From a virus: a DNA stretch of 25,540 nt. Below, one piece after another: positions 2,593 to 24,225 of the stretch. The first letter of the stretch is position 1. Every line of letters begins with the position of its first letter. The stretch lies in IMG/VR virus record IMGVR_UViG_3300024346_000456, positions 1 through 25,540 of that record, one strand, 5' to 3'. Position numbers and translations under genes: made by a program. The notes under the pieces are model-generated. The model was not told the DNA's origin and made no database searches. It saw nothing but the letters and a program-made list of their open reading frames with translations.

Positions 2593-3306
2593 TTAAGTCC
2601 TTTCATTAGGTATTGCTAATACATCGTATTGAGCTTCCGTATCTGCACAATCAGGGATATTAGTCCATTTATAACCAAAAGAATCCAATGCTGCAAACAC
2701 ATTCTCGTAATCAAATCCATGTTGCTGCAATGCCCCACGATTTACTTCAATAAACATCGTTGGTCTAAACTTCATGATAAAGTTATCCGCACCTTCTAAT
2801 GCAAATATCTCATTACCTTCAACGTCTATCTTTAGAAAGTCACAACGATCAATGATTCCCATCAATGAATCCAATGTCATTGACTGAATAATATCTCCAA
2901 CATTATCGCCACTCTCAATCCCATCTAAGAGCATTTTACTCGCACCTACATTTTGTGTATTCCGACTAAAGAAAGCTGAATCATTCTGTTTATTGCCAAC
3001 ATAACGATTAAATGCGATTACGTTATCTTTAAACTCGTCCAAGTTCTTTACTAGGCATTGAATAGCTTCCGCATTAGGGTCAATAGCGATAACACGACCT
3101 GTAGTGCCAACAGCCCTAGCATAAGCAATAGTATGGTCGCCGATATAAGACCCACAATCAACAACAGTATTGCCTTCTGAAATATATCTAATAATGATTG
3201 GAATAATATGTCGATCATGGTCTAATCTCCCTGTTTCTTCAATCCACTTACTCAACCACAAGTCACCTTCAATTACGTGGATACCTTCTTTAGTTTGTTT
3301 AATCAT
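2593..3306 (-). CDS. FkbM-family methyltransferase
   Basis: A 237-residue SAM-dependent methyltransferase. The SAM-binding motif I is VVDCGSYIGDHT (about residues 48-59), the acidic motif is VIAIDPNAEA (72-81), and the FkbM signature FLKIDVEGNE is at 157-166, followed by a PTMFIEVN strand. FkbM enzymes usually O-methylate sugars or related small molecules. In a cassette of glycosyltransferases the natural reading is methylation of a transferred glycan. The ATG at 3304-3306 overlaps the upstream stop as ATGA, favouring this start over one five codons earlier. Length is typical for the family. Confidence 0.85.
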   Translation of the reverse strand: MIKQTKEGIHVIEGDLWLSKWIEETGRLDHDRHIIPIIIRYISEGNTVVDCGSYIGDHTIAYARAVGTTGRVIAIDPNAEAIQCLVKNLDEFKDNVIAFNRYVGNKQNDSAFFSRNTQNVGASKMLLDGIESGDNVGDIIQSMTLDSLMGIIDRCDFLKIDVEGNEIFALEGADNFIMKFRPTMFIEVNRGALQQHGFDYENVFAALDSFGYKWTNIPDCADTEAQYDVLAIPNERT

Positions 3307-3956
3307 TGTAGTACTACCCATTTCCCCTTGAGTGAAGGGCGGTTAATGTATTCTTTTCTAGCATATTGATGTAAAACCTTTTTACAACTTAAATCGAGAG
3401 AATTCACTAAGTTTAATGCTCCACAGTCAATACTGTGAATCTCAGTTGCTTTTTCGATGATATTTATCCAATCAAAAATATTATCACTAATTTGCTTTAA
3501 GTAAATCTTTTTAAGTTCCGTCTCTACCTTTGCCTCATCGATTAATCCGTTGCTAATTACCAAGCAATATTTCTCACCGTACTCTGGAGGCATTAAGAAA
3601 TAATCTTTTTTAGCTCCAATCTTAAATGAACTCCAACGACATTCAAAATCTACCCCTGCATGGCGATATAATTCTTTATCCCATTTAGTCCTATCGAATG
3701 TATCCGATGAATAGTCACCTAGCTTTATTGACTTTGATCCTAATTCAGACTCAAAGAAATCGCTTTGGTTTGGATCTGAATACTTTACCACTGATACTTG
3801 TTCCGATACGTCACTAAACATTGTCTCTAATGAAACCTTATTCCAAGAATAACAAGGGACAATAATATTTGTATCCTTGATAAGCTCCCTTACTAATCCA
3901 TTACAAACGATAGCGTCACCTAATCCTAAGTGCCACTGTAGGAATGTTGTCTTCAT
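3303..3956 (-). CDS. GT-B glycosyltransferase, heptosyltransferase (GT9)-like
   Basis: 217 residues. The N-terminus reads WHLGLGDAIVCNGLVREL, which matches the glycine-rich GDxI...P/G loop at the start of GT9-type ADP-heptose transferases. Near residues 173-186 is IHSIDCGALNLVNSL, resembling the family's C-terminal donor-side motif, in which a Ser/Asp pair precedes a conserved small residue. It is shorter than cellular heptosyltransferases (about 320-350 residues), so it may be a trimmed phage version. It is coupled to both neighbours by ATGA overlaps. Substrate unknown. Confidence 0.6.
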   Translation of the reverse strand: MKTTFLQWHLGLGDAIVCNGLVRELIKDTNIIVPCYSWNKVSLETMFSDVSEQVSVVKYSDPNQSDFFESELGSKSIKLGDYSSDTFDRTKWDKELYRHAGVDFECRWSSFKIGAKKDYFLMPPEYGEKYCLVISNGLIDEAKVETELKKIYLKQISDNIFDWINIIEKATEIHSIDCGALNLVNSLDLSCKKVLHQYARKEYINRPSLKGKWVVLQ

Positions 3957-4675
3957 TTGAGAAGCTCTTCCATTTCCTTTTTCTTATCTTCGGTCAAGCC
4001 ACCGTGACTCCAATTTTGAATTATCTTAACCTTCGGGAGATCTCTATCTTGTTCGGTGTCCCACCAATAATATTCGTCATGACACAATTCATCCAATACA
4101 GCACCCATCAAATTAAACTCACTAATTCTACTTAGTGTCTGGACATATTGAATAGTTGGATAGTTTTGGATTGATTCTACGTATTCACGAATTTTAGCAA
4201 AATGATCTTTCTTCACAACAAATGGTAATCTACGCATGTATTCGTACTTTACAGGACGACCAACTGACTTCTCCGTACATTCCTTCCAGCAGATAGCGTC
4301 TCCAACCGAAGAATAATCTGTCTTAAGCCAAATAGGTTTACCGCTTTTAAAGTAATCATCTAAATTGCTTTTCTTGTTAAAGAAACAATCAGAATCTAGG
4401 AAAACAACGTATTCCCCTTGGCAGAAAATATCGGCATGAAGTTTATTCACTTGCTGGTCAATATATCCATCTTTATGTGAATCACTCCAATGAGTCAACC
4501 GAACCCAAGGAAAATCAAGTAGGATCTCCCCCTTCAATCGATCATATTCGGAGTTAGGGAAGCATACCACTACCTCCCCGTCTGACATATCCCAGTTCTT
4601 TTTAATTGAACGTAAACAATATTTCAGCCATTCCATATCCTTGGAATAACTCCGAATAAAGATCGAATGTTTCAT
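3953..4675 (-). CDS. GT-A glycosyltransferase with DSD motif
   Basis: 240 residues, starting MKHSIFIRSYSKD. The ATG at 4673-4675 has AGGAG 4 nt upstream and overlaps the preceding stop by one base. The key motif is YVVFLDSDCFF, with the metal-binding DSD at about 94-96, preceded by a K-L-H-A-D-like helix typical of GT-A enzymes acting on nucleotide sugars. The C-terminal third has a cluster of acidic and aromatic residues (HDEYYWWDTEQD) that could form the acceptor site. It probably adds one sugar in the same pathway as its neighbours. The acceptor could be the virion surface or a nucleotide/DNA base; the sequence does not say. Confidence 0.7.
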   Translation of the reverse strand: MKHSIFIRSYSKDMEWLKYCLRSIKKNWDMSDGEVVVCFPNSEYDRLKGEILLDFPWVRLTHWSDSHKDGYIDQQVNKLHADIFCQGEYVVFLDSDCFFNKKSNLDDYFKSGKPIWLKTDYSSVGDAICWKECTEKSVGRPVKYEYMRRLPFVVKKDHFAKIREYVESIQNYPTIQYVQTLSRISEFNLMGAVLDELCHDEYYWWDTEQDRDLPKVKIIQNWSHGGLTEDKKKEMEELLK

Positions 4676-5658
4676 TAGACTCCTGCTAGTTGGTTCTTGG
4701 TATTGTGCGGTCCCCACGCATTCATTCCGAAGTGTAGGCACAATGCTCCAGTATCTACTAGCGTTTTAAATCCAGCTTGTCCAGCTAATTGAAAGAAAGT
4801 TACATCTTCCCCTTGTCCGCTCGCTACAGGAGGACGGAAATAATCAAAATAAGGGAACTCAACATCTTGAGGTTGACGCTCTGGGAACTTATCTCGGATA
4901 GCTTTGAATACGTCTCGGTGGATCAATACAACGCCTGTACCAGTCCAATCCGTTTCAATAAGGTGTCCTCGTGCTTCACGCATGGTTTGATAAGCGTCAC
5001 GGCTACGCATACCTTCACCATTCAAAGGAACCCCGTTCTTATGTCGTCCAAAGTATGTCCCACCGACAATAGGTTGACCGTGACTCATAAGACGGTCTAC
5101 AATATGTGTATAAAGGATATGCTCAGGAATTAGTTTGTCTTGGACATTCTCTTGTTCGGTAATGTTAGCAAACTTCAAGAACAGATCAGGACGACCTAAT
5201 GGGAATAGAATATCGTCATCAAACCATAACGACCATGTAGCGTCGGTTTTATTCACAAACCAATCAGCCAAACGGTTACGGGCATTAACAATTAAGCTAT
5301 CAATCTCAACTTGATACAATGCCTTATCACGAGGCAAGTCACGAGCTAGAATGATATGAGAAAATAATACCCAACTCGATACAGTTCGTGCCGTAGGAAT
5401 ACAAATAGCTAGATCGGGATGAGCTGGATCTTTATATTCGGTCGCCTTGATATTCTCTGTGCCATCAACATTCTTAGCTGATTCAAAGTTAATTCCTTTT
5501 AATTCAAGGAACTTCTCTACGTCATCAATATCAGGAACCACTGGAGACTCTGGGTCAAGCCAAGCATGGATACGCTTGTTATTTGTCCCGAATTGTTTAG
5601 CTGATTCACTAACCCCAACTTTATTAATATACTCTGTAATTTGTTCTTTAATTGTCAT
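4675..5658 (-). CDS. Glycosyltransferase with N-terminal helix-turn-helix-like domain
   Basis: 327 residues, start at 5656-5658 after AAGGA 9 nt upstream. Residues 13-35 (VGVSESAKQFGTNNKRIHAW) look like a small helix-turn-helix. From about 80 the protein becomes a GT-A-like transferase: an opening LAICIPTART strand, an ARNRLADWF segment, and a WFDDDILFP metal-binding motif (DDD at 147-149). The C-terminal GEDVTFF...AGF...DTG pattern matches the acidic catalytic/acceptor region of GT2-like enzymes. It follows the scaffold gene directly. The fused DNA-binding-like domain is odd for a sugar transferase and may target the enzyme to DNA or a protein partner; that is inference. Confidence 0.75.
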   Translation of the reverse strand: MTIKEQITEYINKVGVSESAKQFGTNNKRIHAWLDPESPVVPDIDDVEKFLELKGINFESAKNVDGTENIKATEYKDPAHPDLAICIPTARTVSSWVLFSHIILARDLPRDKALYQVEIDSLIVNARNRLADWFVNKTDATWSLWFDDDILFPLGRPDLFLKFANITEQENVQDKLIPEHILYTHIVDRLMSHGQPIVGGTYFGRHKNGVPLNGEGMRSRDAYQTMREARGHLIETDWTGTGVVLIHRDVFKAIRDKFPERQPQDVEFPYFDYFRPPVASGQGEDVTFFQLAGQAGFKTLVDTGALCLHFGMNAWGPHNTKNQLAGV

Positions 5659-5659
5659 A

Positions 5660-6946
5660 TTATCGTCCTTCAATTTCGTTAATCATTTGTTCAAGTGCCG
5701 CTTGGTCGTCCATCATAAAATCAACCGCTGGTTTTTTTGCTACTGGTTTAGGAGCATTAACAACTGGTTGAGTATTTGTTCTTCCTACGGATTGTAGTTT
5801 TTGGATTTGAGCCTTTAATGCTGCATTCTCAGATTGGTAAGATTTAATATCTTCTGCCAATTTGAAATAACCACAAGCTGCCATAGCCGTTTGAGCCTTA
5901 ATTTTTGGATCGGTCGAATACAATCCTTTTTGGAAACGCTCTACATGCGTATTCCATTCGGACATTTGACGATCATAATTCTTAGCTTGTTCTGGTGTAG
6001 GATTAATAGGTTTCTGTGGTTCATTAGCCCAAGGAATTTCTTTTTGAATCCGTTGAACTTCTTCCTGCATTTGAGACAAGCTAACTTTTTCTTGTTCGAC
6101 GGTCTGAGTTTTCTTTTGGTTATGCCATTGATCGTAATTTTTTGCAGCGTCTTGGATTACACTTAATCGCTTATCGGCAATACCGTAGATATTTGTAAGG
6201 CTTTTTTTAATATCCTCACGTGTAAACTCATATTCCTCACCCTTTAAAGAACCAAGAATTATCTTAGCCCATTCATCACGTGATTTAGATAAAATACCGC
6301 CATTCTTAATAATCTCAGTAATGGCTTCGTCTGACATTCCAAGTTCTTTAAACTTACCAAATAGCTTATCCTCTTCCGTAATAATTGATTGGACGTATTC
6401 TTTTTGGAACTCTGGATCTGATTGAATGTCAGCCATTCGTCGGAACTGACGTAGTTCCTCGATCTCTTTCTGGATCGGTTCTGGAAGTGCAGCCCCTTTC
6501 TCGTATGACGCTAAAGCTTTAACTGCTTCCTCATATTTATTTTCTACCTCACGAGCCTTCTTTTCAAATACTGAAGCACGTTGGCGTAGGTTAGCCCAAT
6601 TACTTTTCTTCTCTGGACTTAAGTGTTTCGGGGTCGGGAACTCTTTTTCGAGAGGATCTTCTTCGATTGCTTTAGGCTCTTGATTGTCGCTAGGGGAGGC
6701 GGGGGAAGGAGCGGGATTCTCCTCGATTTCTGGCTCAGGAGTTGGTTCGGTTTTAATGCTTTCAACAGGCTCAGGAGTTGGTTCAATATTGTCATTTGTG
6801 GGCGTAGGTTCTGGAGTTGATTGTTCGTTTTCGACTTCATTCGCTAGCTGTTCAATAGCGTTAATATCATCTGGATCGGGTGTAGATCCAGAATTATTGT
6901 CTGGAGCAATAGGTGTATTAAAATCACCTACATTTTCTTCTTTCAT
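5660..6946 (-). CDS. Scaffold-like capsid assembly protein
   Basis: 428 residues, start supported by AAGGAATAA before the ATG at 6944-6946. Residues 1-100 are a low-complexity Pro/Glu/Thr/Ser region with repeated TPEP units, very likely disordered. Residues 105-320 are highly charged and helical with coiled-coil character. The C-terminus has another helix (YQSENAALKAQIQKL) and a Pro/Lys linker before a short acidic helix. The composition and the position between portal and capsid genes match phage scaffolding proteins, which bind capsid subunits through a helical C-terminus. I see no protease motif. A minor head protein is the alternative. Confidence 0.65.
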   Translation of the reverse strand: MKEENVGDFNTPIAPDNNSGSTPDPDDINAIEQLANEVENEQSTPEPTPTNDNIEPTPEPVESIKTEPTPEPEIEENPAPSPASPSDNQEPKAIEEDPLEKEFPTPKHLSPEKKSNWANLRQRASVFEKKAREVENKYEEAVKALASYEKGAALPEPIQKEIEELRQFRRMADIQSDPEFQKEYVQSIITEEDKLFGKFKELGMSDEAITEIIKNGGILSKSRDEWAKIILGSLKGEEYEFTREDIKKSLTNIYGIADKRLSVIQDAAKNYDQWHNQKKTQTVEQEKVSLSQMQEEVQRIQKEIPWANEPQKPINPTPEQAKNYDRQMSEWNTHVERFQKGLYSTDPKIKAQTAMAACGYFKLAEDIKSYQSENAALKAQIQKLQSVGRTNTQPVVNAPKPVAKKPAVDFMMDDQAALEQMINEIEGR

Positions 6947-9669: not shown

Positions 9670-10250
9670 TATTTACCTATGAAACAACGTGCAGGAGCTA
9701 AGGCAGAGGCTTCCTTCTTATTGTCCTTTAACCAGATTGCCGTTCTAGTATCAAATTCATATACCCTACATGACTTACATTGTTGACCGTACGGAGTGTC
9801 TTTCCCGTTGCGTAAGATCATAGTCAAACGCTTAACGTCTTGAACGCACTTAGGGCATTGATCCTCCCAAGAAGTCTGCATAGGGCATGTATGACAGAAT
9901 GAAGCTCTATTCATTGCGTCCATGTCTGATACTGGTGTTCGATCAGACGAATAAATAGAATGACACCACTCCTGTATCTTATCTATTAAACGCTTCTTTG
10001 GAGCTTCATGGTATGTTGGTTGTGTGGCAGCCCTAGATTCACCGCATTGTTGTGGATACTTGCCACAAATATGATTGCGAATCTCCATAGCGGGATCACC
10101 TATCGGTAGCATATTCTGGCTACGATATTTAATTAGCATGTCCTGTAGTTCTTCATATCCATAGGACTTAAACTCAATTCCATGAAAGTCATTACCACTT
10201 ACCGTCCAACCATTAGGAGGAACTACGCCTGTTTTTATATCTGTTTGCAT
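9669..10250 (-). CDS. Cys-rich protein with tandem CxxC knuckles
   Basis: 193 residues. Residues 1-100 have no clear motif beyond two Cys around a GKYPQQCGE segment. The C-terminal half carries FCHTCP, QCPKC and QCKSC, then a last Cys near the end (RCFIGK), enough for two zinc sites or an iron-sulfur cluster. The gene overlaps the end of the ACP gene by 16 nt and the next gene by one base, so all three are co-translated. The pairing with a second Cys-rich protein suggests the two act together. Function unknown. Confidence 0.65.
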   Translation of the reverse strand: MQTDIKTGVVPPNGWTVSGNDFHGIEFKSYGYEELQDMLIKYRSQNMLPIGDPAMEIRNHICGKYPQQCGESRAATQPTYHEAPKKRLIDKIQEWCHSIYSSDRTPVSDMDAMNRASFCHTCPMQTSWEDQCPKCVQDVKRLTMILRNGKDTPYGQQCKSCRVYEFDTRTAIWLKDNKKEASALAPARCFIGK

Positions 10251-10471
10251 GTCTTTAATTGCTCCGTTAATTCGTTTAATGTTTTTGCTGGAGGTAAATT
10301 ATATGGAATGTCAATTTTAAATGCTCTTTCTAACTCAAATACAGCAGAAATGTAATCTAAACTATCTAATCCAAGGTCTTCCTTAAGATTAATGTCGTAA
10401 CTAAAATCAGCAACCTCTATGTCTTTAACTTTCTTCAATATATTAACTACGTTCTCTTGTGTTATTTCCAT
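10235..10471 (-). CDS. Phage-encoded acyl carrier protein
   Basis: 78 residues with the diagnostic ACP sequence: LKEDLGLDSLDYISAVFELE (about residues 29-48), in which Ser37 of DSL is the expected 4'-phosphopantetheine attachment site. Acidic helix II follows it, and length, acidity and four-helix layout match type II ACPs of fatty-acid synthesis. AAAGGA lies 5 nt before the ATG at 10469-10471. It sits between the large terminase and two Cys-rich genes. No acyltransferase, ketosynthase or phosphopantetheinyl transferase is visible here, so the host must supply the cofactor and partners. Possible roles are redirecting host lipid synthesis, lipid A or virion acylation, or acting as a protein partner. 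Confidence 0.92.
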   Translation of the reverse strand: MEITQENVVNILKKVKDIEVADFSYDINLKEDLGLDSLDYISAVFELERAFKIDIPYNLPPAKTLNELTEQLKTCKQI

Positions 10472-16256: not shown

Positions 16257-17222
16257 TCAAGTCCAGTACTCAGAAAACATTGAAACATAAGCATTATCAG
16301 GGACACTAAACTTGACTGGTTTATCAAACATATTGATCCAACCCCAACTTGCTGGCATATCGTTAGGGTGTATCTGACCTCCTAACTTATATCGTTTCTT
16401 CCAATTATCATGGTCGGTCAGGCACTCATTAAAGTTATCTAACGCAACTTTAACTTTAGGAGTATCAACACCGAACAAGTTCCTTAAATGCACCAATGCC
16501 TCTAAGTTCATTAGTGTGTAGCTGCACGACTTATTACCCCTAGCTAATTCCAATGGCATACTGCCGTCCTCTTTAATCTGGTCACAGGCTATCGTATAAA
16601 GGTAATAGGCATGTTCTAATAACTCTCGATTATTCATAACCACGGCAGAAGTAGCTAAATATAAAGCCTTCCATGTCATGTGATTGTTTAGTTGTGCGGG
16701 TCGGTATCTCTTAATATACCCGACATTCATTGGCAATCTACGTTTAGCGTAGAACTCCCTCTCAGCAGGAGTAGCAGACTTAATCATAATGTAATTAAGA
16801 ATCGTAGTAAACTCGCAGATAACAATAGGAGTATCACCTTCCGACCGACCAATAAGACCATCCCAAAATGTACCACCATCACAAGGCATACCCATAGTCT
16901 CAAGCATTGTAATACACTTTTTACCTTTATTCCCTACAAAACAATTAAATGAAGCTATACGCATCCAGTTACAGATACTAGATTGGATATTACCATTACT
17001 ACCAAAGTGTCTAGGAACTTTGAATGCAGGCATTATACCGTAACCTTTTTCTTGTGGAGGTGGAAATAAATCACTAGTGGCAATCTCATGAAACTCAGTA
17101 AAATCAGGCATACGTGATTCGATCTGTTCCCATGTATTACATGACGTAGGTAACGGCTCACGACGACCTTCATTCTGATTCCAAAACAACTTAGCTTTTA
17201 CAAACTCGTATATTGTATTCAT
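16257..17222 (-). CDS. PL5-type alginate lyase (polysaccharide lyase)
   Basis: 321 residues, expected to cleave alginate or a related uronate polymer by beta-elimination. The ATG at 17220-17222 has GGAGG 7 nt upstream. The signature is strong: QLNNHMTWKALYLATSAV (about 177-194), then DQIKEDGSMPLELARGN (214-230) and SYTLMN (234-239). In the characterised PL5 enzyme A1-III the catalytic residues are N191, H192, R239 and Y246. Here N180, H181, R228 and Y235 keep exactly the same spacing (47 and 7). The fold would be an alpha/alpha barrel. No signal peptide is present, so release would be at lysis. It is not fused to a tail protein. The target could be host mucoid exopolysaccharide. Confidence 0.82.
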   Translation of the reverse strand: MNTIYEFVKAKLFWNQNEGRREPLPTSCNTWEQIESRMPDFTEFHEIATSDLFPPPQEKGYGIMPAFKVPRHFGSNGNIQSSICNWMRIASFNCFVGNKGKKCITMLETMGMPCDGGTFWDGLIGRSEGDTPIVICEFTTILNYIMIKSATPAEREFYAKRRLPMNVGYIKRYRPAQLNNHMTWKALYLATSAVVMNNRELLEHAYYLYTIACDQIKEDGSMPLELARGNKSCSYTLMNLEALVHLRNLFGVDTPKVKVALDNFNECLTDHDNWKKRYKLGGQIHPNDMPASWGWINMFDKPVKFSVPDNAYVSMFSEYWT

Positions 17223-17404
17223 TCTTTTGCCTCCACTGATTTCCAACTATTATTATCTGATGGAGAATCCGTCCATACAAATCCAATATTAATATCGTAA
17301 CATCCTTGGAAAGTTTGAATTTTATTGCCTTGAAAAGTTTGAATTTTATTACCTTGGAAGGTTTCAATTTTATTGCCTTGGAAGGTTTCAATTCTATTAT
17401 TCAT
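17219..17404 (-). CDS. Octapeptide-repeat protein
   Basis: 61 residues beginning MNNRIETFQG, built of four copies of N-(K/R)-I-(E/Q)-T-F-Q-G (residues 3-34), then CYDINIGFVWTDSPSDNNSW and an end KSVEAKE. GGAGG lies 7 nt before the ATG at 17402-17404. The repeats may form a small solenoid or multivalent binding stretch. The C-terminal PSDxxSWxSVE also ends the upstream gene, so the two are partial paralogues. Overlaps on both sides are ATGA type. Function unknown, but close coupling to the lyase is notable. Confidence 0.7.
   Translation of the reverse strand: MNNRIETFQGNKIETFQGNKIQTFQGNKIQTFQGCYDINIGFVWTDSPSDNNSWKSVEAKE
17304..17399. repeat. 24-bp tandem repeat, four copies
   Basis: Four adjacent 24-nt units (17304, 17328, 17352, 17376) beginning CCTTGGAAAGTTTGAATTTT or close variants. 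They encode the octapeptide N-K-I-E/Q-T-F-Q-G on the minus strand. The two units on each side share private changes (AGTTTGAA versus GGTTTCAA), indicating expansion by duplicated pairs. Confidence 0.95.
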
Positions 17405-19097: not shown

Positions 19098-19196
19098 TTA
19101 TTTCCTAGTATCCTGTAACACATTACCGTCACGATCATAAGTAACGAACGGGTTGGAGTGATAGGTTATTTTAAAATTCAATTCTAAACATATCAT
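19098..19196 (-). CDS. Possible 32-residue gene overlapping the nuclease 3' end
   Basis: An open frame in the 75-nt gap after the nuclease-like gene, encoding MICLELNFKITYHSNPFVTY then DRDGNVLQDTRK. The last 24 residues look like a normal small beta hairpin (VTYDRDGNVLQD). Its stop lies 3 nt before the next gene's ATG. Neither the ATG at 19194-19196 nor an internal TTG has a ribosome site, so it could also be a broken or leftover tail. Confidence 0.35.
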   Translation of the reverse strand: MICLELNFKITYHSNPFVTYDRDGNVLQDTRK

Positions 19197-19674
19197 TTAT
19201 TTTATCATATAAAACAGTTGTAGGGACTGGACAATTTAATGTGTCGTATCCAAAGTTCTTTGCGTATCTAGTTCCGTATAATTCAAGCCACTCGCTTTTA
19301 GATTCATTCCACGCTCGTTTTAATTCTAAAACAGGCAACAAATATACAATTTTATCAGGCAAAAAACCATAGGCAATATAATCACACATTAAATCCTTTT
19401 CAACCCAACCCAACGTATTCTTTTGATTATTAGATATGTATTCCAACATAATATCCCCACAATCTTTGATTCGTCTAATTTTTTCATCTACCAATATTTG
19501 TTTACTATTGGACATGATTAAAGAACGATCAACACCTAATTTTTGGTGATCTCCATTTTGATTGTGAGATACAATAGATGCTAATGCTGGAAATGCTTTC
19601 TTGTAAGCTATAGACCAAAATTCTTCTATTTTAGAATCCTGTGAAAACTTTATATCTTTGTAGAAATCATTCAC
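19171..19674 (-). CDS. Possible PD-(D/E)XK-type nuclease
   Basis: 167 residues. The start is a GTG at 19672-19674 that overlaps the stop of the methyltransferase as GTGA. A run GVDRSLIMSNSKQILVDEKIR (about 47-67) has Asp49, then Asp63-Glu-Lys65, the spacing and order of the PD-(D/E)XK nuclease core; EYIS and DYIAYGFLP follow as typical flanking elements. Proteins with this layout occur in phages near adenine methyltransferases. A restriction-like or DNA-degrading role is inferred, since no motif other than the acidic triad can be verified. Confidence 0.5.
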   Translation of the reverse strand: MNDFYKDIKFSQDSKIEEFWSIAYKKAFPALASIVSHNQNGDHQKLGVDRSLIMSNSKQILVDEKIRRIKDCGDIMLEYISNNQKNTLGWVEKDLMCDYIAYGFLPDKIVYLLPVLELKRAWNESKSEWLELYGTRYAKNFGYDTLNCPVPTTVLYDKINDMFRIEF

Positions 19675-20762
19675 ACTTCATTACCCCATGTTCCCCATCC
19701 AATTCTTACTTCACGGCAGTACATTTCAATTTTCTTTTGTTCTGGAAATGCTCTTTCAATCCACTCATAAACACATTGAGGTTTTTTACTATGACGACCC
19801 CTTTCCTCACTAAACACAGAAGATACACGTTCACTTTCTGGAGTTGCACTAGGGTTACCCTTAACGCCAACAAGAAGCAATTCATGTTGTCCTCTAAACC
19901 AATACCCCATACCTACAAGTTTTTTATCCCAAATAGCATGAGTTTTATATTGAAACCCCCAACCTTCAAGAACCTCTATTCCTTCTTTTAATTTAGGTGC
20001 TGTAGCCCACAACAATAATATTGCGTCTTTATTTGTTTCGGGTTTATGACTAATAATTTCTTCTACTGTTGCCGTAGGATAATGATTCTCAATGTCTCTA
20101 TTAGCTGCTTCCTGATGATCGTATCTCCATGGTGGGTCAGCCAACACTAAATCATAAGGACCAGCTATATTGTTTTTAGGCTCTAATCTTACTCTTTCAA
20201 TCTTCTTAGAGTGTTCAGCTTTCTTCTCCTCACGAACAATATCTTTGTAGGCTGAATTAATCGTAACCTCGCCCTTAGATAATTTTTCTTTTGTTCGGTC
20301 GTCGGCATTAGCCTCAATCTTTTTGATCTTGTAGATCGTGTCGTGTGATACGTTCGCCGCCTTCGCCACTTCTTTTTGAGTGTCAACCTTTACAGATATC
20401 TGTGAACCTTGCCCTGCCTTAGATAGATTCTCCTTAGCCTTCTTGGAAATCTCTTCCTCCATTCGCAACGCAAGGACACCCCTAGTATAAGAGGATAGGT
20501 TCCTACGACCGAATTGATTCTTAATGATCCAGATAATAACGTCCGACCGATCCACGAAATCCAACTCCTTAACATCAAATTCTAACCCATGTCTTACGGC
20601 GATCTCATACCGATTATGTCCGTCAATCAATGTACCACCCCAAACACAAAGCGGTTCTCGGATGCCATCTTTCAAAATATTTTGTTCTAATAATTCAATT
20701 TCTTCTTGAGTTGGTTTAGGGATTAAATCTCTAATTTCATTATCAATTTTAAGTGTTTTCAT
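19671..20762 (-). CDS. ParB-like domain fused to MT-A70 N6-adenine methyltransferase
   Basis: 363 residues if started at the ATG at 20760-20762; the frame is open to 20819, but the first residues there are not conserved-looking and have no ribosome site. Residues 16-60 hold a ParB-like core (LIPKPTQEE, ...GGTLIDGHNRYEIA at 41-54). Residues about 128-150 (TQKEVAKAANVSHDTIYKIK) form a helix-turn-helix. The C-terminal part is an MT-A70 methyltransferase: VLADPPWRYD with DPPW at 209-212, the SAM/adenine catalytic motif, LLLWATAPK, and WDKK...MGYWFRGQHE. It would methylate adenine in DNA (or RNA), perhaps to protect phage DNA. It is coupled to the nuclease-like gene. Confidence 0.88.
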   Translation of the reverse strand: MKTLKIDNEIRDLIPKPTQEEIELLEQNILKDGIREPLCVWGGTLIDGHNRYEIAVRHGLEFDVKELDFVDRSDVIIWIIKNQFGRRNLSSYTRGVLALRMEEEISKKAKENLSKAGQGSQISVKVDTQKEVAKAANVSHDTIYKIKKIEANADDRTKEKLSKGEVTINSAYKDIVREEKKAEHSKKIERVRLEPKNNIAGPYDLVLADPPWRYDHQEAANRDIENHYPTATVEEIISHKPETNKDAILLLWATAPKLKEGIEVLEGWGFQYKTHAIWDKKLVGMGYWFRGQHELLLVGVKGNPSATPESERVSSVFSEERGRHSKKPQCVYEWIERAFPEQKKIEMYCREVRIGWGTWGNEV

Positions 20763-20770
20763 AAGCTCTA

Positions 20771-20798
20771 AATGTATCACAGATTTAATGCTTGTAAA
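20771..20798 (-). promoter_or_regulatory. Candidate promoter for the methyltransferase gene
   Basis: On the minus strand TTTACA (complement of 20793-20798), 16-nt spacing, then TACATT (complement of 20771-20776). The predicted start falls within about 2-3 nt of the preferred ATG at 20762, so the mRNA may be nearly leaderless. It is back to back with the plus-strand TTGACA at 20813-20818, so the two are divergent. Confidence 0.4.
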
Positions 20799-20812
20799 GG
20801 ATAAAAATTTAT

Positions 20813-20840
20813 TTGACATTTGTTATGTTTTGAGTAGACT
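20813..20840 (+). promoter_or_regulatory. Candidate promoter for the structured RNA
   Basis: TTGACA (20813-20818), 16-nt spacing, then TAGACT (20835-20840), which keeps four of six -10 bases. It reads rightward into the structured region and predicts a transcript start near 20847. It also overlaps the upstream end of the methyltransferase frame on the other strand, making a compact divergent control region. Confidence 0.5.
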
Positions 20841-20846
20841 AATATG

Positions 20847-21402
20847 TACTCAAGAGAGTGACTAGGATAACTCATATTGTAGATTCCTTATGAGGGCTGT
20901 TTCACCGAGCTTTAAAATCGTGGTGAACCCTTCGGGGTATCCGAAAGGATACGCTCTAGTATCGGTGTGATAGGGAACGATAAGGCAGGCTGCCTAATGC
21001 CGCCAGAGCCTACTTGGGGATGTCAGGGAAGTAGCAGTATGGATAATGACAAACGGACATGGTAGAGAACGTAATGCCGAGGTTGCTAACCCAACGCTCG
21101 TCATAAGATAGCCGAACCACCCCTATTCTTAAATAAGGTTGACTGCGATGCAAGGATGCGTCTAGAGATCAACATTACGATGTAACGGAACTAAAAGACC
21201 GTATGTTATCTGGTGAGGGTTATCACCAGCGAAGCCTAAGCAGGACACGCTAGGAGCGGGAAAACATAACAGAATACGTCAGTACTCAGATTTAAACCTA
21301 TCTTTTTTACCACAAGTAAATGAGCTAGGTTTACCTTTGTCTAACGAGGAACTTACCTACACGATACTAATATGTTCCGAGTATTTGATATGTCTTTTTT
21401 TT
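20847..21402 (+). ncRNA. Large structured non-coding RNA candidate (about 550 nt)
   Basis: No frame of useful length is open on the plus strand, yet helices are dense. Examples: CTCATA/TATGAG (20871-20894), TTCACC/GGTGAA (20901-20927), CCC-TTCG-GGG (20928-20937), TATCC-GAAA-GGATA (20938-20951, a GNRA tetraloop), TATCG/CGATA (20960-20982), AGGCA/TGCCT (20983-20995), ATGTC/GACAT (near 21020 and 21055), a CGAG.GTTG/CAAC.CTCG hairpin (about 21078-21100), TAAGATAG with CTATTCTTA, GTTGA/TCAAC, and CTGGTGA/TCACCAG (about 21210-21230). Both tetraloops are stable only on the plus strand. TACTC (20847-20851) can pair with GAGTA (21379-21383). A run of eight T follows (21395-21402). Size resembles ROOL/GOLLD-type phage RNAs, but identity is not established. 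Confidence 0.6.
21364..21402 (+). terminator. Weak hairpin plus T8 at the end of the structured RNA
   Basis: ATACT (21364-21368) pairs with AGTAT (21380-21384), then ten bases and eight T (21395-21402). The stem is short and the gap long, so termination may depend on the closing helix of the large RNA instead. The loop contains ACTAATATGT, which also occurs at 20839-20848. Confidence 0.35.
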
Positions 21403-22093
21403 AGTTGTAGCTTTTGATTCTTATTTACTATTGATTCTATCTAAACTATTGTTATTATTCTTTATTTGTATAGGTTATTCATTACGAACGACTTATGAAA
21501 ATATTATTGTAAGTGAGTTATGTATCCTCCCCGAAAAGAAACATTACAAGAACGGCTCCGCCAAGTTGATATAATAAGTTATTAAACTATTATAAGTAAA
21601 TATTACATGGAGTAAGCTATACATAATAACATATGTATATACGTTGTAGGCTACGCTGAAAAAAATAATAAAAAAAAATAGGACGTAGGCTAATTATAAC
21701 ATGGTAAAAATTTTAGAAAAAAGCGAAAGGGTAGTACTTTTTAGTAGTGCGTGGGCGTGAATCACTCCCACACCCACCCCCCGTACCCCTCCCACTAATG
21801 CAACGCCACCACACCGAATCAGTCATTGGATTGATTGGTGTCGATTGGACTGGAAGAGAGGGGAAAAGATAAGGAAGAAAAAAACGTAAGAAAGAAAGAG
21901 CTGCACGATACAACCCCCCTCCTCTCGCTTATCTGGAATCATGAGGATACGCCTGCAATATAAACAGTATGACTATAAATATACAATATGATCTATACAT
22001 AAGCATGTAATAACTTATGTAATATATTGACCATCAACGGTTTATATCAAGAATCGTTTATAGGGCGTTTTGATTTAAGGGTAAGGTGTTTAT
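21403..22093. other. Gene-poor AT-rich region with skewed block
   Basis: No convincing coding sequence. It holds A- and T-rich runs, two copies of GTAGGCTA (21646-21653 and 21685-21692) on either side of an A-rich stretch, a C-rich plus-strand stretch (about 21765-21815), then a purine-rich one (about 21849-21903). An imperfect hairpin joins ACACCgAATCA (21811-21821) to TGATTGGTGT (21832-21841). Such asymmetric, gene-free DNA between divergent arms is where phage replication origins or packaging signals often lie; this is inference. Confidence 0.4.
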
Positions 22094-22270
22094 ATGGTCT
22101 TTTTGAGATTGATTAATGGTGACGGTCTGATATGGTGGACGCTGTACGGTATAGAGTCCGATATAAGGCTAGTATTGAATAAATATCGTTTGTATATACA
22201 GATTTATTTTGACAAACGTATATACATAGAGTATAGTTGTTTCATGAGTTTGAAAGTAATCAGACTCTAA
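22094..22270 (+). CDS. Weak 58-residue ORF ahead of the early operon
   Basis: An open frame starting MVFLRLINGDGLIWWTLYGI, with TAAGGTG 5-11 nt before the ATG, ending MSLKVIRL. It contains the near-consensus early promoter inside it, which makes coding doubtful. If transcription starts at 22244, only the last eight codons remain and their ATG is the first base of the mRNA. I list it because the ribosome site is acceptable. Confidence 0.22.
   Translation: MVFLRLINGDGLIWWTLYGIESDIRLVLNKYRLYIQIYFDKRIYIEYSCFMSLKVIRL
22209..22237 (+). promoter_or_regulatory. Early promoter, near-consensus sigma70 type
   Basis: TTGACA (22209-22214), 17-nt spacing, TATAGT (22232-22237). It is the best promoter in the window, reading into the early operon. 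A palindrome GTATATAC (22218-22225) lies in the spacer and another (22192-22199) just upstream, so a repressor or activator could act here. Predicted start about 22244, with a 43-nt leader before the first gene. Confidence 0.85.
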
Positions 22271-22286
22271 TAAAGGAAAAAACATT

Positions 22287-22463
22287 ATGACTAAAGAAAC
22301 TTGGAAGGTTACAATCTCAAATGGATCAATCAACATTACATCATTATATGAGGGTAATATGATCGAAGTATTATTTGAAGCAGGCATTGACGCTAGAATG
22401 ACTGGTAAAGATTACAAGGTAACCGATTGCGTAGAGTACACTAAAAATCAAATGGGATTCTAA
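22287..22463 (+). CDS. First early gene, 58-residue hypothetical protein
   Basis: 58 residues: MTKETWKVTISNGSINITSL, then YEGNMIEVLFEAGIDARMTG and an end KNQMGF. AAAGGAAAAAA lies 5-15 nt before the ATG at 22287-22289, and the same motif precedes the next gene. It is probably a small alpha/beta protein: strand, helix (EVLFEAGIDARM), strand. No family recognised. First after the early promoter, which suggests a rapidly needed host-control function, as inference. Confidence 0.75.
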   Translation: MTKETWKVTISNGSINITSLYEGNMIEVLFEAGIDARMTGKDYKVTDCVEYTKNQMGF

Positions 22464-23801: not shown

Positions 23802-23980
23802 ATGAAATAAATAAATGGGAGAATTGTAAGGATATTATGAGAGCTAAAGGAATAGAGTATTCACTTTATTCTGATACAATTAAAATTGCATGCAAAAAAC
23901 TAGGGTTTAATGGCATCACTTTCAGCAACGCCAATGATCTAATGTTTTTTTTGCATGGATTAGAATGGGGGAAGAAATGA
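23798..23980 (+). CDS. Hypothetical protein
   Basis: 60 residues starting MNEINKWENCKDIMRAKGIE, with a strand-rich middle (YSLYSDTIKIACKKLGFNG) and a helix SNANDLMFFLHGLEW. AAAGGGGTTAAA lies before the ATG at 23798-23800. Both ends overlap neighbours as ATGA. Unknown function. Confidence 0.65.
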   Translation: MNEINKWENCKDIMRAKGIEYSLYSDTIKIACKKLGFNGITFSNANDLMFFLHGLEWGKK

Positions 23981-24225
23981 GAAACGAGATATATGAGAGC
24001 TCAACGGCTCCGATCAGCAAGCAATCCAATATCGATGGGGTGAAATCAACCAGCCTTATCATTCGGGTGACTCCAGAACAAAAAACCATGATCGAAACAT
24101 TGGCGGTTAAAATGGGGTTTAATACCTCTGAATGGATACGTCAGGCATCCATAAACCCAAGCCTTGACCTTAGCAGGATCGAACGTGGATTAAATGAACT
24201 TGAACAAAAGGACGGTTTAAAATGA
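23977..24225 (+). CDS. Ribbon-helix-helix regulator
   Basis: 82 residues. After a flexible N-terminus, residues about 24-60 (STSLIIRVTPEQKTMIETLA, then VKMGFNTSEWIRQAS) have the ribbon strand, helix, turn, helix of the Arc/CopG DNA-binding fold; the ribbon would insert in the major groove as a dimer. The start has GGGGGAAG 3 nt upstream. A 17-bp palindrome 190 nt downstream (24415-24431) overlaps a -10 and could be its operator. Probably an early repressor acting on the next operon; binding is inferred. Confidence 0.8.
   Translation: MRNEIYESSTAPISKQSNIDGVKSTSLIIRVTPEQKTMIETLAVKMGFNTSEWIRQASINPSLDLSRIERGLNELEQKDGLK

What the first reader, a model, noticed from the sequence alone, without database searches (positions are those of the whole stretch)
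20813..21402. Large, helix-dense RNA-like region without coding capacity between divergent arms
Between the divergent phage arms is about 550 nt that no reading frame explains, yet hairpins follow one another every 20-40 nt, with UUCG and GNRA tetraloops that are stable only on the plus strand, a possible closing helix between the ends, an upstream promoter and a T8 tract. This is the profile of the big ornate phage RNAs (ROOL, GOLLD). I saw no match to RNase P, tmRNA, or group I or II core motifs. It may be a divergent member or a new class.
Basis: partly seen in the sequence, partly recalled or inferred. Interest (0 to 1): 0.85.

Follow-up and report, generated by a model that had tools for sequence, protein, structure and literature searches.

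The report
Unassigned noncoding segment in orphan phage
Between the two oppositely pointing gene arms of an otherwise unknown phage lies about 550 bases that code for no protein and have several marks of a noncoding RNA read rightward, but the segment folds no better than shuffled sequence, matches no known RNA family and has no detectable relatives, so a new giant phage RNA is possible but unproven.

Summary
The segment is real, noncoding and odd, but its key claimed property, being "helix-dense", does not exceed chance. Six-frame codon scores are far below the phage's own genes. The segment holds the most G+C-rich 300 nt of the contig, next to one of the most A+T-rich. Strand skew matches the rightward arm. 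The contig's only two plus-strand UUCG/GNRA tetraloop hairpins lie here (shuffle P about 0.01). Against a giant ornate RNA: folding z = -0.1 (a real ROOL scored -5.3), hairpin number 16 versus 14.2 +/- 2.7 in shuffles, and closing helices reached by 5-22% of shuffles. All of Rfam 15 gives nothing up to E = 10, including ROOL, GOLLD and group I intron. No relative turned up in phages, plasmids, 822 searched genomes, or by five exact patterns in 2.9 million viral contigs. The phage's terminase has no relative there either, so the decisive covariation test could not be run. A true ROOL also lacked blastn matches, so missing relatives say little. Best reading: a stand-alone plus-strand phage noncoding RNA of unknown class (about 0.45). 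Rivals: a regulatory or origin junction, a primer-type RNA, an inserted noncoding element. Not ROOL or GOLLD by the tests available.

The parts
20846..21402 (+). Proposed noncoding RNA (about 555 nt), from a possible start just after the promoter-like site to the T8 tract; both ends inferred
   Evidence: Noncoding by codon score, G+C peak at 20963-21262, plus-strand skew like the right arm; no transcript data
20813..20840 (+). Promoter-like TTGACA-16-TAGACT
   Evidence: 10/12 consensus match; 10 sites found vs 6.2 expected in the region, so weak
20846..20851 (+). 5' arm of end helix P1 (GUACUC, with GAGUAU 21379-21384)
   Evidence: Pair probability 0.76-0.97; chance of as much end-to-end pairing 5-16%
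20927..20938 (+). UUCG tetraloop hairpin ACCC-UUCG-GGGU
   Evidence: competes with GAGGG/CCUUC and UUCACCG/UGGUGAA pairings in the predicted fold
20937..20952 (+). GAAA tetraloop hairpin GUAUCC-GAAA-GGAUAC
   Evidence: Pair probability 0.99; with the UUCG hairpin, shuffle P 0.0105
20957..20968 (+). 5' arm of long-range helix P2 (UAGUAUCG gUGU, with ACA CGAUACUA 21359-21369)
   Evidence: Pair probability 0.55-0.89; not above chance alone
21074..21104 (+). Hairpin AUG.CGAGGUUG...CAACGCUCG.CAU
   Evidence: Pair probability 0.6-0.8
21138..21173 (+). Hairpin GUUGA/UCAAC enclosing GAUGCA/UGCGUC
   Evidence: Pair probability 0.81-0.96
21210..21229 (+). Hairpin CUGGUGA/UCACCAG
   Evidence: Pair probability 0.85
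21293..21333 (+). Long hairpin with 18-nt arms, 83% complementary; lies in the A+T-rich 3' part
   Evidence: Inverted repeat I3; local z -2.85 plus and -2.18 minus for 21261-21380
21217..21414 (+). 66-codon stop-free frame without ATG/GTG start, weakly coding-like in 21220-21359
   Evidence: Local shuffle P 0.000-0.005 in two overlapping windows of 13; no Pfam, PHROG or phage match
21395..21402 (+). T8 tract, possible 3' end
   Evidence: no GC-rich terminator hairpin directly before it
21381..21680 (.). A+T-rich tract (25% G+C) just downstream
   Evidence: Tied second lowest 300-nt G+C window of the contig

Best explanation
The segment is most likely a stand-alone noncoding RNA of an otherwise unknown phage. 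It would be transcribed rightward from the divergent junction, starting near 20846 and ending near the T8 tract at 21395-21402, with a compact G+C-rich core (20880-21290) whose ends are brought together by two long-range helices. It would act as RNA in early or lytic infection, for example as a scaffold or decoy for a host factor. Shown: no coding capacity, G+C peak, rightward strand skew, two plus-strand tetraloop hairpins. Inferred: that it is transcribed, the two ends, the long-range helices, that it works in trans. The claim that it is as elaborately folded as ROOL or GOLLD is not shown.
For: Noncoding: best six-frame codon score -0.46 vs +0.18 for phage genes, no domain match for the stop-free frames tested. 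G+C peak: 47.7% over 410 nt in a 37.3% contig, top window, and highest 300-nt window 20963-21262 at 49.3%; long G+C-rich intergenic regions are what ncRNA discovery pipelines look for (PMC8723152, abstract). Strand: GC skew +0.10 and 55% purine, like the right arm (+0.15, 59%) and unlike the left arm (-0.17, 44%); only 0.5% of left-arm windows reach it. Tetraloops P 0.0105, none on the minus strand. End complementarity and T8.
Against: Folding z -0.09 and -0.08/+0.65, against -5.28 for a real ROOL; hairpin count at chance; long-range pairing reached by 5-22% of shuffles depending on measure and shuffle; promoter hit not above chance; no homolog and thus no covariation; no expression data; the 3' third has weak coding character. 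Strand skew and G+C could come from other causes.
Confidence: 0.45

Rival explanations
1. The segment is regulatory or origin DNA at the divergent junction (promoters, operators, replication start) and has no function as RNA.
For: Cumulative GC-skew minimum at 20705 and purine-skew minimum at 20769, i.e. at this junction; A+T-rich tract 21381-21680 next door; odd dyad GTGGGCGTGAATCACTCCCAC at 21751-21771, operator-like; fold no better than shuffles.
Against: No iterons in the segment, no exact DnaA-type box in 20700-22300; a G+C peak is the opposite of an unwinding element; transcription alone explains the skew minimum; plus-strand tetraloop bias.
Confidence: 0.25
2. The RNA is a replication pre-primer, like plasmid ColE1 RNA II (about 550 nt, from general knowledge): transcribed rightward, it would invade the A+T-rich tract at 21381-21680 and prime DNA synthesis.
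For: Size, direction, adjacency of the A+T-rich tract and the skew minimum at the junction.
Against: T8 would end the transcript before most of the tract; no origin has been mapped; no relation to RNA II was tested beyond the absent blastn matches in plasmids.
Confidence: 0.08
3. It is a noncoding insertion (mobile element or foreign DNA), which explains the G+C contrast.
For: 10-nt exact direct repeat ACTAATATGT at 20838-20847 and 21366-21375 flanks it, chance 0.026 for such a repeat between the flanks; abrupt G+C change.
Against: No terminal inverted repeats reported at its ends; no second copy in phages or plasmids; the repeat was picked after the fact.
Confidence: 0.08
4. A self-splicing intron or its remnant (group I, possibly group II).
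Against: No match to group I (RF00028) directly or to any of 4227 families up to E 10; the putative P7 strands come in the wrong order relative to the P5-like motif; no upstream exon; no domain V-like hairpin seen.
Confidence: 0.04
5. A member of ROOL too divergent for its model.
For: Length 555-570 nt vs 574; shared AUAAGGCAG and AAGUAGC in like order (by eye).
Against: No hit up to E 10 while a true ROOL scores 158 bits; best local match to the consensus E 0.13-0.34; z -0.1 vs -5.3; no tRNAs nearby.
Confidence: 0.03

Closest known systems
ROOL RNA (RF03087), phage and prophage RNA forming nanocages (PMC12286853)
   Same: Length, phage location, no coding capacity, ends that can pair
   Different: No model match, chance-level sequence likeness, no excess folding energy, no tRNA neighbours
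GOLLD RNA (RF02032)
   Same: Large noncoding RNA in phages
   Different: No match; about 250 nt shorter than the many members that exceed 800 nt (PMC12286853); no tRNA neighbours
Group I intron (RF00028)
   Same: Short sequence likeness to one intron, GAAA tetraloop
   Different: No model match, elements out of order, no exons
ColE1-type RNA II primer (general knowledge)
   Same: Size, transcription toward an A+T-rich stretch at a skew minimum
   Different: No sequence relation found, no mapped origin

Membership tests
ROOL (RF03087) | Matches the Rfam covariance model | tested here: not met
   Nothing up to E 10; positive control L175 scores 158 bits
ROOL (RF03087) | Conserved ROOL sequence blocks | tested here: not met
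   Best local match to consensus E 0.13-0.34
ROOL (RF03087) | Strong secondary structure closed by a long terminal helix | tested here: not met
   z -0.08 vs -5.28; end helix within chance
ROOL (RF03087) | Location near phage tRNAs (common, not universal) | tested here: not met
   No tRNA in the 25.5 kb
GOLLD (RF02032) | Matches the Rfam covariance model | tested here: not met
   the control genomes held no GOLLD above cut-off, so this search has no true positive control
OLE, HEARO and other Rfam 15 families | Matches the family model | tested here: not met
   cmscan of all 4227 families, up to E 10
Group I intron (RF00028) | Catalytic core P3-P8 by model | tested here: not met
   two control genomes pass the cut-off in the same search
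Group I intron (RF00028) | Interrupts a gene (exons on both sides) | tested here: not met
   No upstream plus-strand frame
New structured RNA class | Covarying base pairs across homologs | not testable with these tools
   No homolog found
New structured RNA class | Discrete transcript | not testable with these tools
   No expression data available

The most novel reading that the evidence does not exclude
A new class of large phage noncoding RNA, unrelated in sequence to ROOL, GOLLD and OLE, encoded at the divergent early/late junction of an uncultured phage lineage.
Probability: 0.22. Interest if true: 0.75.

Novelty: new variant of a known kind. Interest (0 to 1): 0.33.

Why it matters
Only a few large phage noncoding RNAs are known, and ROOL and GOLLD form RNA-only cages of unknown purpose. 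A further unrelated class would say such RNAs are a general phage strategy. The present case also shows that 'many hairpins' read by eye in a noncoding stretch is not evidence of structure without a shuffle control and homologs.

Tried and rejected
Rfam at gathering score and up to E 10 on two cuts. ROOL, GOLLD and group I directly. blastn in phages and plasmids. Exact patterns in viral contigs: GGCAGGCTGCCTAATGCC 0 hits; GATAGGGAACGATAAGG 1 hit, only the 17-mer shared; CGGAACTAAAAGACC 91, CATAAGATAGCCGAAC 7, GACAAACGGACATGG 52, nearly all inside long stop-free frames and none colinear. Relatives through proteins: the minus-strand ParB/MT-A70 gene has 13 viral and 6 genome relatives, none with the segment; terminase, two ways, none; portal-size and capsid-size proteins none in phages. 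blastn in 822 genomes around those hits. GAAA tetraloop receptor (UAUGG 21038, CCUAAG 21235): both present by chance in 9% of shuffles, their flanks do not pair, and CCUAAG fits a local hairpin instead; dropped. Further ROOL sequences for a profile could not be fetched.

Full report
The window is a whole IMG/VR virus record of 25,540 bases. It carries a long leftward arm of structural-type genes (terminase-like proteins, alginate lyase domain, ParB and MT-A70 genes) and a rightward arm of small genes. The phage has almost no known kin: its terminase, probed two ways, finds no relative in 2.9 million viral contigs and, probed once, none in about 85,000 genomes; only a weak 27% match to Enterococcus phage phiEf11 exists among phage records; the capsid-size and portal-size proteins find nothing among phages.

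The segment itself is noncoding. No stop-free frame exceeds 66 codons in 20840-21400, codon scores in all six frames are at shuffle level, and no frame matches Pfam or PHROGs convincingly. One caveat: the plus frame 21217-21414 is weakly coding-like in 21220-21359; it has no ATG/GTG start, and its best phage match has E 5. The upstream gene probably starts at 20762, not 20819, because relatives mostly align only from residues 18-23 on, so the promoter-like site at 20813 is probably free of coding sequence.

What sets the segment apart is composition. 20880-21290 is 47.7% G+C in a 37.3% contig and is the top window of that size; the highest 300-nt window of the contig is 20963-21262, and 21381-21680 is tied for second lowest. 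Strand skew changes sign at 20705-20769, and the segment has the skew of the rightward arm. Two plus-strand UUCG and GAAA tetraloop hairpins stand side by side; they are the only such plus-strand hairpins in the contig, P 0.0105 by shuffling. These points fit an RNA read rightward.

What does not fit a giant ornate RNA is the folding statistic. The plus strand folds at -148.6 kcal/mol against -148 +/- 6.4 for shuffles. Hairpins of 5 bp or more number 16 against 14.2 +/- 2.7. The end helices are attractive (GUACUC/GAGUAU and UAGUAUCG/CGAUACUA), but 5-22% of shuffles show as much long-range or end-to-end pairing. As a control, a true ROOL found in a bacterial genome (L175) scores 158 bits with Rfam and folds at z = -5.28, although its neighbouring 600-nt stretches also give -2.1 and -3.7.

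Membership in known families was tested and not met: all 4227 Rfam families up to E 10, ROOL and GOLLD one by one, group I. Both are chance-level or have the elements in the wrong order.

Homologs were sought by blastn, by five exact patterns, and through flanking genes, without success. This absence is weak evidence: the true ROOL L175 also finds no blastn match in 50,697 phage records, and the whole phage is without kin. The covariation test that would settle the matter therefore could not be done.

Verdict: a genuine noncoding compositional outlier, most likely an RNA gene read rightward, of unknown class and unproven structure. The rivals are origin or regulatory DNA at the junction, a primer RNA at an origin, and a noncoding insertion marked by the 10-nt repeat ACTAATATGT at both ends.

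Noticed in passing
window 10235-10471 (-): Phage-encoded acyl carrier protein: Pfam PP-binding E 4.7e-7, with a DSLD motif, between structural-type genes.
   Followed up: partly
window 16257-17246 (-): Protein with an alginate lyase domain (PF05426, E 4e-18), possibly a depolymerase for host polysaccharide.
   Followed up: no
window 2593-5673 (-): Cluster of FkbM-type methyltransferase and glycosyltransferase-like genes in the structural arm.
   Followed up: no
window 19671-20762 (-): Fused ParB-like and MT-A70 methyltransferase; with the next gene (19171-19674) it forms a pair conserved in contigs L003-L007. The ORF start at 20819 is probably too early.
   Followed up: partly
window 21751-21771: Odd dyad GTGGGCGTGAATCACTCCCAC in a G+C-rich island (21735-21860) of the junction, operator-like.
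   Followed up: no
window 21632-21645 and 22215-22228: Perfect 14-nt inverted repeat TATGTATATACGTT / AACGTATATACATA, 569 nt apart, in the junction; the second copy lies within a strong promoter-like site (TTGACA-17-TATAGT, 22209-22237).
   Followed up: no
window 23965-24225 (+): Small protein resembling mobilization protein NikA (PF21983, E 1.8e-7) in the rightward arm.
   Followed up: no
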